8,481 nucleotides of DNA. Origin: Candidatus Woesearchaeota archaeon. GTDB lineage: Archaea > Nanoarchaeota > Nanoarchaeia > Woesearchaeales > CALCXY01. Of the stretch, positions 1,826 through 7,945 are shown in pieces. The stretch covers positions 1-8,481 of the forward strand of contig JASMFX010000046.1 of NCBI GenBank assembly GCA_030751555.1. The letters run 5' to 3'. Within the stretch, counting starts at the first letter, position 1, and each line of letters opens with the position of its first letter. A program made the translations under genes and the position numbers. The notes below the pieces were generated by a model, which was not told the DNA's origin, did no database searches, and saw only the letters and a list, made by a program, of their open reading frames with translations.

Positions 1826-1871
1826 ATTTTTCCTATCTCCCCTTACCCAGGTACGGGGAGATAGGAAAAAT
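1826..1871. repeat. Palindrome C, copy 1 of a dispersed 44-bp element
   Basis: Arms 1827-1842 and 1855-1870 pair perfectly over 16 bp (17 with the flanking A-T), around a 12-nt loop ttacccaggtac that contains a further tacc/ggta match. The central 26 nt (1836-1861) recur at 7911-7936 with two differences. The 3' arm ends in AAAAAT, so neither strand produces a hairpin followed by U residues; this argues against an intrinsic terminator. Confidence 0.85.
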
Positions 1872-1977: not shown

Positions 1978-2523
1978 ATGAAACATGGTCAAATCATCAT
2001 TGTAGTGTTTTCTCTTCTTGTTCTTGGATCACTAGCATTTTTAGAAACCCGTCTTAACGTTCTCCAACCACCCAAACAGGAAACCTTTGTGGCGATGAAC
2101 CATCCCAACGACTTCCAAAATGAGGATGAAGGGACTTTTTCCATGAACATCAACATCGGGTACGATACGTTAGAGCACCACTTTGGATTTATTCCTGATA
2201 ACCTCATTATTTTTAATTCTAAAAAAATTCAGGGCCTACGGCTCCTCTATAACCTAGAGGATAAGATCATGACCGGTGGTCTACCTTCCCTCAAGTCTTC
2301 GGCCTTCGAATTATTTGACAAACAAAACCACAACATTATCTATACCTTCAAAAAGAATATTGGGCAAAAGTTCATAGTAGATGGAACAGATATTGGAGTA
2401 GGTCCCTATGATCCCACAAAGATCAGCAATCTCATTACAGGGAATGTAATCCTAGACATCTCAAATCCACCAACCGCAGACATTCCAGCAAACGTCGAAA
2501 TCCTAGATCTTGCTCTCATTTAA
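1978..2523 (+). CDS. Membrane-anchored extracytoplasmic protein of unknown function
   Basis: I do not recognise the family. The 181-aa protein opens with MKHG and a hydrophobic stretch at residues 5-22 (IIIVVFSLLVLGSLAF), best read as an N-terminal membrane anchor or uncleaved signal. About 155 residues should lie outside the membrane. That part is rich in short alternating hydrophobic strands: GTFSMNINIG, LIIFNSKKIQGLRLLY, NIIYTFKKN, then KFIVDGTDIG (131-140). The order strand / 'FNS' / strand / 'F.VDG' loosely resembles concanavalin/LamG-like beta sandwiches, where a VDG turn is common; this is only a fold-level guess. The gene stands alone between the palindrome-rich intergenic region and the cysteine operon promoter, and it has its own leaderless promoter. 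It has no cysteines, unlike many secreted disulfide-stabilised proteins. Confidence 0.8.
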   Translation: MKHGQIIIVVFSLLVLGSLAFLETRLNVLQPPKQETFVAMNHPNDFQNEDEGTFSMNINIGYDTLEHHFGFIPDNLIIFNSKKIQGLRLLYNLEDKIMTGGLPSLKSSAFELFDKQNHNIIYTFKKNIGQKFIVDGTDIGVGPYDPTKISNLITGNVILDISNPPTADIPANVEILDLALI

Positions 2524-2534
2524 TCTGTAATTTA

Positions 2535-2549
2535 GGAAATATTTAAATA
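2535..2549 (+). promoter_or_regulatory. Strong BRE/TATA promoter of the cysteine operon
   Basis: ggaaat (2535-2540) fits the archaeal BRE pattern and abuts a near-ideal TATA box, tatttaaata (2540-2549). The TATA centre (about 2545) is 26-27 bp from 2571/2572, which is where an archaeal transcript normally starts. That falls on the ATG of the poly-cysteine mini-ORF, so this ORF would be at the very 5' end of the mRNA, and cysE would have a leader of nearly 60 nt. Confidence 0.75.
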
Positions 2550-2571
2550 CCAGTTCCTCTTCCTTATTCCT

Positions 2572-2598
2572 ATGCGAACAATAAACTGTTGTTGCTAA
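2572..2598 (+). CDS. Leaderless 8-codon poly-cysteine leader peptide (MRTINCCC)
   Basis: ATG at 2572 falls on the start site predicted from the TATA box at 2540-2549. It reads M-R-T-I-N-C-C-C and stops at TAA 2596-2598, 30 nt before the cysE GTG. Three consecutive Cys codons (TGT TGT TGC) lie directly before the stop, and the downstream genes make a cysteine precursor and charge tRNA-Cys. Poly-cysteine leaderless upstream ORFs are known as cysteine-responsive attenuators in mycobacteria; this has the same layout. When charged tRNA-Cys is scarce, a ribosome would stall on the Cys codons and change folding or access around the cysE start. The peptide itself is probably not functional. The caveat is that 'tgttgttgc' is a simple triplet-like run, so chance is not excluded. 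Confidence 0.6.
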   Translation: MRTINCCC

Positions 2599-2613
2599 AT
2601 ATTCTCATTGTTC
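2576..2613 (+). promoter_or_regulatory. Candidate attenuator stem around the leader peptide
   Basis: gaacaat (2576-2582, within the leader peptide) is the exact reverse complement of attgttc (2607-2613, between the leader stop and cysE). The 7-bp stem encloses the three Cys codons and the stop. A ribosome on the leader ORF would keep it open. Separately, atca (2616-2619) can pair with tgat (2630-2633) in the SD-like region. The fold is short and AT-rich, so this is tentative. Confidence 0.4.
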
Positions 2614-2628
2614 TTATCAGATCTATAG

Positions 2629-3210
2629 GTGATTCTTATCGCAAATGCCATAATCGAAGACATAAAAGCAGTTCAAAAAAACGACCCAGCAGCCAAGAGT
2701 TTATTAGAGGTTCTGCTCTGCCATACCCCTCTCCATGCTATCATAGCCCATCGTTTTATCCACGAGCTGCACAAAGCAAACCTCAGAATCCTAGCAAGGT
2801 TCCTTTCCCAACTAAATCGATTTTTTACAGGCATTGAAATCCATCCAGGTGCAAGCATTGGAAAAGGGTTTTTCATTGATCACGGCATGGGCATTGTTAT
2901 CGGAGAAACCACTACTATCGGCACCAACTGCCAGATGTTCCATGGCGTAACATTAGGAGGAACAGGCAAACACCAAGGAAAAAGGCACCCAACTATTGGA
3001 AATAATGTCTACATAGGCATGGGAGCAGTCCTCCTCGGCCCTGTCAAAGTAGGAAATAACGTAAAAATTGGAGCAAACACCTTTGTCGTGATGAAGGACA
3101 TCCCGAATAATGTCACCGTCGTAGGCCAAAATCCCAAAATCATTAAGCTCAATGGCCAAAAAGTAGTCAGGGATCTAGAAAGAACAAACCACAAAGAATA
3201 TATACTTTGA
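2629..3210 (+). CDS. cysE: Serine O-acetyltransferase
   Basis: Makes O-acetylserine from serine and acetyl-CoA, the committed step of sulfide-dependent cysteine synthesis in the cytoplasm. At 193 aa it is the short, bacterial-type form. The N-terminal helical region has [15 protein letters not shown] and the LHAIIAHR motif. The left-handed beta-helix hexapeptides begin at [11 protein letters not shown] (68-78), then [13 protein letters not shown] (82-94), GVTLGGTGK (106-114) and RHP (119-121). His85 corresponds to the catalytic His of E. coli CysE and Glu70 to its Asp partner. GTG at 2629 is the only standard start, because a TAG stop lies immediately upstream. However, the SD-like aggtgat (2627-2633) overlaps that GTG and is spaced ideally for codon 4 (ATC, 2638), so the real start is unsettled. 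It is followed after 16 nt by cysS. The bacterial-type sequence suggests ancient transfer. Confidence 0.95.
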
Positions 3211-3226: not shown

Positions 3227-4627
3227 ATGACCTTAAAGATTTACAACACGTTAACGAGAAAAGTAGAAACCTTCAAGCCACTCAAGAAAGGTCACGTAGG
3301 AATATACGCTTGCGGCCCTACAGTCTATAATTTTGTCCATATTGGCAATCTAAGAGCATACATCTTCTTTGACTTGGTGAACAAGTACCTAAAATACAAA
3401 GGCTATAAAGTCAACTTAGTTTCCAATATAACAGATATCGAAGATAAAATCATACGAGATTCTCAAAAACAAGGAATCTCCTTAAAGCAATTCACAGAAA
3501 AGTACACAAAAGCATACATCGAAGATCTTAAAACACTGAACATCGATCTCCCGAACCAACTCCCTAAAGCCACAGATTACATAAATCAAATGGTGACTTT
3601 AACAAAAAAACTACTTGAAAAGGGTTATGCATACAAATCTGGTAAATCTTACTATTACAAAATTAAAGCTTTCAAAAACTATGGAAAGATTGCGCATCTG
3701 GATAACCTGGATCAGTTGATGAAAAATGCTGAAGGACGTCTTTCAGATGCTGATGAGTATGAAAAAGACGATGTCCGAGATTTTGCTTTATGGAAAGGAT
3801 ATGATAAAGAAGATGGAGAGGTTTTCTGGGAAACAGACCTTGGCAAAGGCAGGCCTGGCTGGCATATTGAGTGCTCTTGCATGTCTTCTGATCTTCTAGG
3901 AGATACATTTGACATCCACATAGGGGGAGTAGACCTCATTTTTCCACATCACACCAACGAAATTGCTCAGTCAGAGGCTGCTTCAGGTAAAAAATTCGTA
4001 AACTACTGGCTCCATAATGAGCACCTTCTTGTTGATGGGAAAAAAATGTCAAAGTCATTAGGTAACTTTTATACGTTAAGAGATTTACTAGACAAAGGCT
4101 ACGACCCAAAATCCATACGCTACTTGTTATTATCAACACACTACCGTCAAAAACTTAATTTTACCTTCGAAACCCTAGACTCAGCTAAAGCCCCTATTGA
4201 GCGCCTCCAAGAGTTCGTAAGAAACCTCTCCCACATTAAGTCATCAAAAGACAACAAGAAGGTGCAGCCCCTCATCACAAAGGCAGAAAAAGAATTCGAA
4301 GCAAAACTAGACAATGATCTTAATATCTCTGAAGCACTAGCAGTTATCTTCGATTTCATAAGAGATATCAATAAGCTGGAGATATCCAAAAGTGACGCTA
4401 AGATCGTCATCTCCACCATCTTCAAGTTTAATGAGATTATCGGCGTTCTCGATAAGCCAAAAAAAGAAACCCTCCCTGCCACAATCAAAAAGCTCATCGA
4501 TGATAGAGAACAGGCAAGAAAGAACAAAGACTTTGAAAAAGCAGACAAACTCAGAGATGAATTAAAAAACAAAGGCATTGAATTAGATGACGCACCTGAA
4601 GGGGTTAGGTGGAAAAAAATAACTTAA
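3227..4627 (+). CDS. cysS: Cysteinyl-tRNA synthetase
   Basis: Class I aminoacyl-tRNA synthetase that activates cysteine with ATP and charges tRNA-Cys. The 466 aa are close to E. coli CysRS (461). YACGPTVYNFVHIGNLRAY carries the zinc ligand Cys29 and the HIGN signature (38-41). The other expected zinc ligands are Cys216 in GWHIECSCM, His241 and Glu245 in FPHHTNE. The KMSKS loop is intact at 273-277. The C-terminal helical bundle ends in the typical R-E-x-AR-x-x-KDFEKADKLRDEL segment and GVRWK. The start is set by an SD at 3214-3222, and it is co-transcribed with cysE. The stop (TAA 4625-4627) overlaps the stop of the opposite-strand gene in the palindrome ttaa. Having CysRS implies direct charging rather than reliance on the SepRS/SepCysS route alone. 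Very confident. Confidence 0.97.
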   Translation: MTLKIYNTLTRKVETFKPLKKGHVGIYACGPTVYNFVHIGNLRAYIFFDLVNKYLKYKGYKVNLVSNITDIEDKIIRDSQKQGISLKQFTEKYTKAYIEDLKTLNIDLPNQLPKATDYINQMVTLTKKLLEKGYAYKSGKSYYYKIKAFKNYGKIAHLDNLDQLMKNAEGRLSDADEYEKDDVRDFALWKGYDKEDGEVFWETDLGKGRPGWHIECSCMSSDLLGDTFDIHIGGVDLIFPHHTNEIAQSEAASGKKFVNYWLHNEHLLVDGKKMSKSLGNFYTLRDLLDKGYDPKSIRYLLLSTHYRQKLNFTFETLDSAKAPIERLQEFVRNLSHIKSSKDNKKVQPLITKAEKEFEAKLDNDLNISEALAVIFDFIRDINKLEISKSDAKIVISTIFKFNEIIGVLDKPKKETLPATIKKLIDDREQARKNKDFEKADKLRDELKNKGIELDDAPEGVRWKKIT

Positions 4628-7901: not shown

Positions 7902-7945
7902 CTTAATTCTTCTCCCCTTACCTGGGTACGGGGAGAAGAATTAAG
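7902..7945. repeat. Palindrome C, copy 2 of a dispersed 44-bp element
   Basis: Arms 7902-7917 and 7930-7945 are perfectly complementary over 16 bp around a 12-nt loop (ttacctgggtac). Arm length, loop length and the 7-bp inner stem (tctcccc/ggggaga) are identical to the copy at 1827-1870. The outer 9 bp of each arm match that copy at only 2 of 9 positions, yet stay self-complementary. It lies between the divergent valS and 72-aa genes, where a terminator would not be expected. No T-tract follows on either strand and I see no target-site duplication. Confidence 0.85.

What the first reader, a model, noticed from the sequence alone, without database searches (positions are those of the whole stretch)
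2540..2598. Leaderless poly-cysteine leader peptide ahead of cysE-cysS: candidate archaeal cysteine attenuator
A near-ideal TATA box (2540-2549) predicts transcription starting on the ATG at 2572. That ATG opens an 8-codon ORF, MRTINCCC, whose last three codons before the stop are all cysteine. The downstream operon makes the cysteine precursor and charges tRNA-Cys. Stalling on consecutive codons of the end-product amino acid is the logic of attenuation. In mycobacteria, leaderless poly-cysteine uORFs are described as cysteine-responsive attenuators. I know of no described archaeal example, so this could be an independent invention or a wider mechanism.
Basis: partly seen in the sequence, partly recalled or inferred. 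Interest (0 to 1): 0.85.

Follow-up and report, generated by a model that had tools for sequence, protein, structure and literature searches.

The report
Archaeal cysteine-sensing leader peptide
A very short gene of eight codons ending in three cysteines sits at the front of a cysteine-supply operon in an uncultured archaeon, and relatives carry the same kind of switch for cysteine, leucine, valine, tryptophan, serine and aspartate, which looks like an amino-acid attenuator family in archaea.

Summary
Of 33 CysE-encoding genomes in one Woesearchaeota order, 22 carry an equivalent poly-Cys ORF behind a TATA-like box upstream. A model of Cys codons plus post-stop sequence found 25 more leaders among 42 hits examined; 22 of these precede cysS, cysK-type genes or the SepRS-SepCysS pathway. 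A linear element, TTCTnTTCATTGTTTTAG, follows the stop: CATTG starts 3-11 nt after it in 14 of 23 CysE-found leaders and 0 of 427 ordinary stops. Searches blind to cysteine found the same architecture with Leu codons before leuS, Val before valS, Trp before trpE and trpS, Asn/Asp before aspS, Ser before serA-serS. tRNA-Cys lies downstream of 11 of 45 leaders, so control cannot be only of translation initiation. Cys leaders show no hairpin switch. Best reading: ribosome stalling on scarce-amino-acid codons controls early transcription termination without hairpins. Start site, amino-acid response and direction are inferred. A 2021 paper states that no archaeal transcription attenuation was known.

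The parts
2540..2549 (+). TATA box (TATTTAAATA), preceded by purine-rich BRE-like GGAAA (BRE by recall); predicts a transcription start at or next to ATG 2572
   Evidence: best TATA 9-mer within 60 nt starts 31-34 nt before the start codon in 40 of 54 leaders
2572..2598 (+). leader ORF MRTINCCC (predicted leaderless: ATG at the 5' end of the RNA)
   Evidence: relatives
2587..2595 (+). sensor codons TGT TGT TGC (Cys-Cys-Cys) directly before the stop TAA
   Evidence: 170 Cys codons in 46 Cys leaders, TGT 122 and TGC 48
2602..2616 (+). conserved post-stop linear element TTCTCATTGTTCTTA (CATTG core 2606-2610), proposed effector module
   Evidence: CATTG 3-11 nt after the stop in 14 of 23 CysE-found leaders, 0 of 427 ordinary stops
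2627..2633 (+). AGGTGAT, probable Shine-Dalgarno sequence of cysE
   Evidence: by eye the same spacing to the start codon as AGGT in relative L009
2629..3210 (+). cysE, serine O-acetyltransferase (GTG start as listed; the true start may be ATC 2638)
3227..4627 (+). cysS, cysteine--tRNA ligase

Best explanation
A TATA box starts an RNA whose first codons are a leaderless leader peptide ending in Cys codons. Ribosomes translate it while RNA polymerase is still close by. When Cys-tRNA-Cys is plentiful the ribosome reaches the stop codon, where its leading edge meets the UUCUCAUUG element a few nt downstream, and leaves; RNA polymerase then tends to pause and terminate (or the RNA is cut, for example by FttA/aCPSF1) in or just after the U-rich element. 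When charged tRNA-Cys is scarce the ribosome stalls on the Cys codons, the element is handled differently (exposed, with a ribosome held behind the polymerase), and transcription runs on into tRNA-Cys, cysE, cysK or cysS. The sensor codons differ by operon; the effector element is shared. Shown by comparison: the architecture, its conservation, codon-to-gene matching, the element's register to the stop codon, and lack of a hairpin switch in the Cys leaders. Inferred: start site, translation, stalling, termination, and the on/off direction.
For: Conservation upstream of cysE in 22 of 33 genomes. Independent recovery by model R1, which holds no TATA, start codon or gene information: of 42 hits examined, 25 are leaders with a start codon and TATA-like box, and 22 of those precede Cys genes. 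A Cys leader precedes sepS, a SerK/SbnI-like gene and SepCysS, a non-homologous route to Cys-tRNA. Cys-free searches found Leu-leuS (3), Val-valS, Trp-trpS, Trp-trpE, Asn/Asp-aspS and Ser-serA/serS with the same element. Distance from stop to CATT has SD 1.4 nt against 11.0 nt from start codon to CATT, over 51 of 53 leaders, which points to a ribosome at the stop as ruler. ARAGORN calls tRNA-Cys(gca) downstream of 11 of 45 leaders, in 10 within 100 nt. The 20 nt after the stop are 52% T against 31% at 30-70 nt (57 leaders).
Against: No transcript, ribosome-profiling or growth data. Eleven of 33 CysE genomes showed no clear leader in the stretches read, and 9 of 23 CysE-found leaders lack exact CATTG at 3-11 nt. 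CysE itself was not found in the eight fibrillarin relatives (0 of 8). The element is absent after 427 ordinary stops, so it is not simply a general gene-end terminator; whether it pauses, terminates, is cleaved or binds a factor is unknown. One leader (L093) reads through the element and stops after it. Cys leaders show no alternative RNA structures, so the switch cannot be read off the RNA as in bacteria.
Confidence: 0.72

Rival explanations
1. Translation attenuation or reinitiation, as described for mycobacterial cysteine genes: the leader controls access of ribosomes to the cysE start codon.
For: In the window the cysE SD (2627-2633) begins 29 nt after the leader stop codon, and trpE in L195 starts about 24 nt after the CATTG core. 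A 2026 paper says several mycobacterial cysteine biosynthesis genes are regulated by translation attenuation (passages).
Against: tRNA-Cys is called downstream of 11 of 45 leaders, within 100 nt of the stop in 10; a tRNA needs no translation. The Cys leaders show no hairpin or SD-masking structure beyond shuffles (mean z +0.28 local and +0.43 whole; window). The distance from leader to the first listed ORF varies from tens of nt to over 500 nt.
Confidence: 0.12
2. Post-transcriptional control: the element is an RNase or RNA-binding-protein site whose masking by a terminating ribosome sets the stability of the RNA, with transcription unaffected.
For: The element is registered to the stop codon, is linear, and was not found after ordinary gene stops (0 of 427), as expected of a specific recognition site. 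FttA binds U-rich RNA and cuts nascent RNA (passages of PMC11616081).
Against: tRNA-Cys, freed by RNase P (recalled), would escape leader-based decay. The U-rich make-up and promoter-proximal place fit termination at least as well.
Confidence: 0.12
3. The element is a DNA operator for a repressor and the leader ORF is incidental or only marks the promoter.
For: The element lies close to the promoter (31-84 nt from the start codon).
Against: The element keeps its distance to the stop codon (SD 1.4 nt), not to the start codon (SD 11.0 nt). Sensor codons match the downstream gene for several amino acids while the element stays the same.
Confidence: 0.03
4. The ORF encodes a functional Cys-rich or metal-binding microprotein.
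For: Repeated Cys residues; the N-terminal MIR(Q/E)DYYR is kept in nine leaders.
Against: The rest of the peptide is not conserved across groups, and peptides with Leu, Val, Trp, Ser or Asn/Asp codons occupy the same architecture.
Confidence: 0.01

Closest known systems
Mycobacterial leaderless polycysteine uORF attenuators (Canestrari et al. 2020, title seen as a reference; paper not held; mentioned in passages of PMC13236596)
   Same: Leaderless-type start, run of Cys codons before a stop, upstream of cysteine-supply genes.
   Different: Archaeal TATA promoter; conserved linear post-stop element; no SD-masking structure found; tRNA-Cys and cysS in the operons; same architecture used for other amino acids. 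The mycobacterial case is called translation attenuation in the passages seen.
Bacterial leader-peptide transcription attenuators (trpL, hisL, leuL classes recalled; Mtb ilvB1 described in passages of PMC13236596)
   Same: Codon run of the end-product amino acid in a short leader ORF ahead of the cognate biosynthesis or aaRS operon; Trp codons before trpE; Leu codons before leuS followed by an aminotransferase class IV gene.
   Different: No terminator/antiterminator hairpin pair in the Cys leaders; the leader begins at the predicted RNA 5' end; archaeal transcription machinery.
Archaeal FttA/aCPSF1-dependent termination (passages of PMC11616081, PMC8116511, PMC8448881)
   Same: U-rich RNA is the FttA site; ribosome and FttA/aCPSF1 are proposed to exclude each other; promoter-proximal aCPSF1 goes with reduced escape.
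   Different: No leader-peptide control of it appears in the passages seen; here a specific CATTG core sits at a near-fixed distance from a leader stop codon.
T-box riboswitches
   Same: Control of aaRS and amino-acid genes by tRNA charging (recalled).
   Different: No T-box match in window 2500-2700; sensing here is by codons in an ORF.

Membership tests
Ribosome-mediated (leader-peptide) attenuator | short ORF with a run of codons for the end-product amino acid | tested here: met
   Codon runs present and conserved; translation itself not testable here
Ribosome-mediated (leader-peptide) attenuator | located ahead of the cognate operon, in cis | tested here: met
   22 of 25 R1-found Cys leaders precede Cys genes; a 23rd does so on an overlapping contig; 8 non-Cys leaders precede matching genes
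Ribosome-mediated (leader-peptide) attenuator | expression responds to supply of that amino acid through the codons | not testable with these tools
   needs expression data
Bacterial terminator/antiterminator attenuator | mutually exclusive hairpins, terminator hairpin with U-tract | tested here: not met
   46 Cys leaders fold no better than shuffles on average (mean z +0.28 local, +0.43 whole); window. Single small hairpins across the stop occur in L140, L141, L143, L151 and the Cys leader L036
Mycobacterial leaderless polycysteine attenuator | leaderless start | tested here: inconclusive
   predicted from TATA spacing; no TSS data
Mycobacterial leaderless polycysteine attenuator | consecutive Cys codons before the stop, upstream of Cys genes | tested here: met
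Mycobacterial leaderless polycysteine attenuator | acts on translation of the downstream gene (translation attenuation as named) | tested here: not met
   as a general mechanism: no SD-masking fold and tRNA-Cys downstream of 11 of 45 leaders; for the window alone it is not excluded
T-box riboswitch | Rfam-recognisable structured leader | tested here: not met
   no such match at E up to 5 in window 2500-2700
FttA-dependent terminator | U-rich RNA upstream of the cut, promoter-proximal release | tested here: inconclusive
   52% T in the 20 nt after the stop; cleavage and release not testable

The most novel reading that the evidence does not exclude
Woesearchaeota possess a general, hairpin-free amino-acid attenuation system: leaderless leader ORFs with interchangeable sensor codons (Cys, Leu, Val, Trp, Ser, Asn/Asp) joined to one shared linear UUCAUUG element at near-fixed distance from the stop codon, which lets the position of one ribosome decide whether archaeal RNA polymerase terminates. 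This would be the first transcription attenuation in archaea, invented independently of bacterial hairpin attenuators and used for tRNA, aminoacyl-tRNA synthetase and biosynthesis operons.
Probability: 0.65. Interest if true: 0.95.

Novelty: new variant of a known kind. Interest (0 to 1): 0.92.

Why it matters
[quoted passage not shown] This report gives 57 concrete candidates, with a defined sensor, a defined element and matched target genes, including a trpL-like leader before trpE. It makes ribosome control of archaeal transcription termination, and the proposed competition between ribosome and FttA, directly testable. It also suggests how uncultured, gene-poor archaea may sense charged tRNA, and offers a way to assign unknown genes to amino-acid regulons.

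Tried and rejected
Hairpin switch in the window leader: folds no better than shuffles. Known RNA family: no Rfam match at gathering score in 15 sources, which also did not call the intron-bearing tRNA-like genes there; only chance-level matches in window 2500-2700. Element as general gene-end terminator: 0 of 427 stops. Leaders outside the order: of 279 genomes drawn evenly from the phylum, 25 matched R1 at E<=0.01; the 10 of these not seen in the order searches gave no TATA-plus-ATG poly-Cys ORF at their hits, so the element-bearing form looks restricted to this order within that sample. Of the 42 R1 hits examined, 17 are not usable leaders: one lies at a contig end and repeats L077 (L078), three lie in one coding repeat, 13 others have no TATA-plus-start Cys ORF. 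By-eye reading of the Cys-free pattern listings (roughly 330 printed rows, long rows cut at 80 letters; most are ordinary genes or chance) gave 20 matches with an in-frame stop 3-9 nt before [TC]TCATTG and at least five codons. Of these, 14 match the downstream gene (Cys 7, Leu 3, Ser, Asn/Asp, Val, Trp) and 6 do not: G008 MPHKEEIAVL, G055 MSILVIL, G213 MKTIKY, G234 MEKDCYDV, G175 MAEYEMSNY, G322 MYCKSC (antisense within a gene). R2 on eight genomes listed far more hits than leaders; only the 30 made into loci were scanned, giving one new leader.

Limits: R1 and the patterns require CATTG-like letters, so element conservation in those sets is partly selected; the unselected figure is 14 of 23. 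Start-codon choice favoured better TATA scores; one leader (L080) starts with GTG. TATA matches range from 6 to 9 of 9. Several leaders lie 0.7-2.5 kb before cysE with cysK or another ORF between. Some leaders are close relatives (the MIRQDYYR group), so counts are not independent events. The whole genome of the window is not held.

Full report
WHAT IS THERE. The window (8481 nt) carries the end of nop5, a NUDIX gene, fibrillarin, cysE, cysS and valS. Fibrillarin's relatives found in genome contigs are eight Woesearchaeota and Nanoarchaeota MAGs at 42-60% identity. Between an unknown 181-aa ORF and cysE, a TATA box (2540-2549) precedes ATG 2572, which opens MRTINCCC (2572-2598). Shuffled windows give such an ORF 0.005 times per window.

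CONSERVATION WITH CysE. CysE was absent from the eight fibrillarin relatives (0 of 8). In 352 genomes of the order of one of them, 33 had a match at E<=1e-25, of which 30 became loci. A scan for short ORFs ending in Cys found leaders behind a TATA-like box (6-9 of 9 matches) upstream of cysE in 19 of the 30. Examples: MQKVNCC in the nearest relative (82% CysE identity), MRTPCCC, MVNSICCC, MKSPGMCCCC, MTKTTCCCDCCCC. In five of the 19 the leader lies 0.7-1.2 kb before cysE with another ORF between, cysK in three. Further upstream stretches of the 14 remaining genomes, including the three CysE hits not made loci, gave three more clear leaders, G267, G268 and G309: the first two stand before a cysK-like gene about 2.5 kb ahead of cysE, the third directly before a CysE-like ORF. 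Hence 22 of 33; G097 and G075 are weak candidates and nine showed none. Within 400 nt of cysE alone, 9 of 31 regions (window included) hold a Cys-ending ORF with TATA of 8 or better, against a shuffle mean of 0.015 (maximum 1 in 200 rounds). The window and its nearest relative share the TATA box, Cys codons and TCATTGTTCT after the stop, while much of the peptide's first half differs.

A POST-STOP ELEMENT. Aligned by the stop codon, the leaders share a T-rich linear element, consensus TTCTnTTCATTGTTTTAGTT. In leaders found through CysE, without reference to the element, CATTG starts 3-11 nt after the stop in 14 of 23; after stops of open frames of 200 codons or more in the fetched loci it does so in 0 of 427. 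In 51 of 53 leaders with a CATT-like core, the distance from stop to core has SD 1.4 nt and from start codon to core SD 11.0 nt. The element therefore keeps register with the stop codon, which points to a ribosome at the end of the leader ORF rather than to the promoter. An exception is L093, whose ORF reads through the element and stops after it.

SEARCH WITHOUT GENE INFORMATION. A sequence-only model (R1: three Cys codons, stop, element) from 18 loci was run on the 352 genomes. At E<=0.5 most hits are chance, so I fetched stretches around 42 of the best listed hits that were not already in hand. Of these 42, 25 are leaders with a start codon and TATA-like box although the model holds neither (24 by script, L093 by hand); 17 are not. 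Of the 25, 22 are followed by cysS, cysK/cysM or a PALP gene of that type, or sepS. Two lie on contigs that end too early; one of these, L077, continues on an overlapping contig with cysK-like and cysS genes. L083 precedes an unknown ORF. One leader (MKTKQNKACCTSCC, L100) precedes O-phosphoseryl-tRNA ligase, a SerK/SbnI-like gene (below cut-off) and SepCysS, the indirect archaeal route to Cys-tRNA. In total I hold 49 Cys leaders (48 genomes and the window) and 8 others (57). Cys codons vary synonymously (TGT 122, TGC 48 in 46 leaders), and the best TATA starts 31-34 nt upstream of the start codon in 40 of 54 leaders.

OTHER AMINO ACIDS. A Cys-free pattern (TATA, 21-25 nt, ATG, 12-42 nt, TTCATTG or CTCATTG) was run on the same 352 genomes (57 genomes repeated because the first listing was cut). 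Reading the listings by eye gave 20 matches with an in-frame stop 3-9 nt before the core; 14 match the downstream gene (7 Cys, 7 others) and 6 do not. The element-only model R2 on eight genomes gave one more leader among the 30 hits scanned. The eight non-Cys leaders are: MKTTILLLLL, MNLKFLLILLN and MIKYKILVLLL before leuS (the last followed by an aminotransferase class IV gene); MFKTVVVVVVG before valS; MVNFKVDYWYWR, with trpS 857 nt downstream after an unknown ORF; a leader ending WTWC directly before trpE (its start codon is uncertain, TATA at 28 or 37 nt); MYINNNRDNDQ before aspS; MELICSSCSA before a DUF1015-aminotransferase gene, serA and serS. Binomial probabilities of the matching residues in the last eight positions range from 1e-2 to 1e-6 each. 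So the codons vary with the regulated gene and the element stays: sensor and effector are separate modules.

HOW IT MOST LIKELY WORKS. ARAGORN calls tRNA-Cys(gca) downstream of 11 of 45 leaders, in 10 of them starting within 100 nt of the leader stop and in seven at 21-31 nt. A tRNA is not translated, so the general mechanism must act on transcription or RNA processing. The 46 Cys leaders fold no better than shuffles (mean z +0.28 local, +0.43 whole), so there is no bacterial terminator/antiterminator pair; small hairpins across the stop appear in L140, L141, L143, L151 and the Cys leader L036. The 20 nt after the stop are 52% T, against 31% further on. My best model: with enough charged tRNA the ribosome finishes the leader, its front edge reaching the element, and leaves; transcription then tends to end at or near the U-rich element. 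With scarce charged tRNA the ribosome stalls on the sensor codons, the element is left in a different state, and the polymerase reads on. Passages of papers support the parts: FttA recognises U-rich nascent RNA and its exclusion by the ribosome is hypothesised (PMC11616081, PMC8116511), and promoter-proximal aCPSF1 goes with reduced escape, consistent with premature termination (PMC8448881). Against a plain terminator stands the absence of the element at ordinary gene ends, so a dedicated pause signal or recognition factor is possible. Start site, translation, stalling, termination and the sign of the response are inferred.

COMPARISON WITH THE KNOWN. It works like leader-peptide attenuation, and its Cys form resembles the mycobacterial leaderless polycysteine uORFs, but it is not a member of either established type: hairpin pairs and SD occlusion were looked for and not found. 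The listings of ten paper searches showed no archaeal leader-peptide attenuator, and PMC8448881 states that no transcription attenuation or antitermination was known in archaea in 2021 (passages). The library lacks most subscription papers, and Canestrari 2020 was not held.

RANGE. In 279 genomes drawn evenly from the phylum (some already searched), R1 matched 25; the 10 newly seen genomes among these gave no real leader. The element-bearing form thus looks confined to this order in that sample; element-free relatives could not be tested.

Noticed in passing
window 2627-2647: cysE has no in-frame ATG start at the expected place: the SD AGGTGAT is followed at the usual spacing by ATC (2638) where relative L009 has ATG; GTG 2629 overlaps the SD. 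Either a non-AUG start or a sequence error.
   Followed up: partly
window 1826-1871 and 7902-7945: Two 21-22 nt inverted repeats (95% complementary) sharing the core CCCCTTACC..GGTACGGGG, one after fibrillarin and one upstream of valS; also imperfect 26-30 nt inverted repeats at 1718-1824. Function unknown.
   Followed up: no
L100 (G138:C45): A SepRS, SerK/SbnI-like, SepCysS operon in a genome of this order sits behind a poly-Cys leader.
   Followed up: yes
L073 (G103:C81): A poly-Cys leader precedes a PIG-L deacetylase (weakly BshB1-like, below cut-off), an unknown gene, a GNAT gene and cysS, which hints at a low-molecular-weight thiol pathway.
   Followed up: partly
L144 (G008:C29): Leader-like ORF MPHKEEIAVL with the element TTCTTTCATTGTTTTAA precedes an aspartate-aminotransferase-like gene, with no clear codon run; the sensed amino acid is unclear.
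   Followed up: partly
L011 (G341:C13), L012, L015, L027, L033: tRNA-like genes stand before cysE that ARAGORN names otherwise (Asp, Leu, Pyl, Ile, with introns) or misses, and Rfam does not call; probably intron-bearing tRNA-Cys, not counted here. L011 also has a LAGLIDADG ORF after its leader.
   Followed up: partly
L036 (G090) and L038 (G096): Long Cys-rich leaders (ending FCSCCCCCC and FFCCCCCNC) with perfect TATA boxes but no CATTG element precede divergent CysE-like genes; L036 has a hairpin across its stop. Possibly a second subtype with another effector.
   Followed up: no
L027, L069, L071, L072, L076, L084, L086, L087, L096: These nine leaders share the N-terminus MIR(Q/E)DYYR before variable Cys-rich ends, more conserved than a pure sensor would need, though the genomes may be close relatives.
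   Followed up: no
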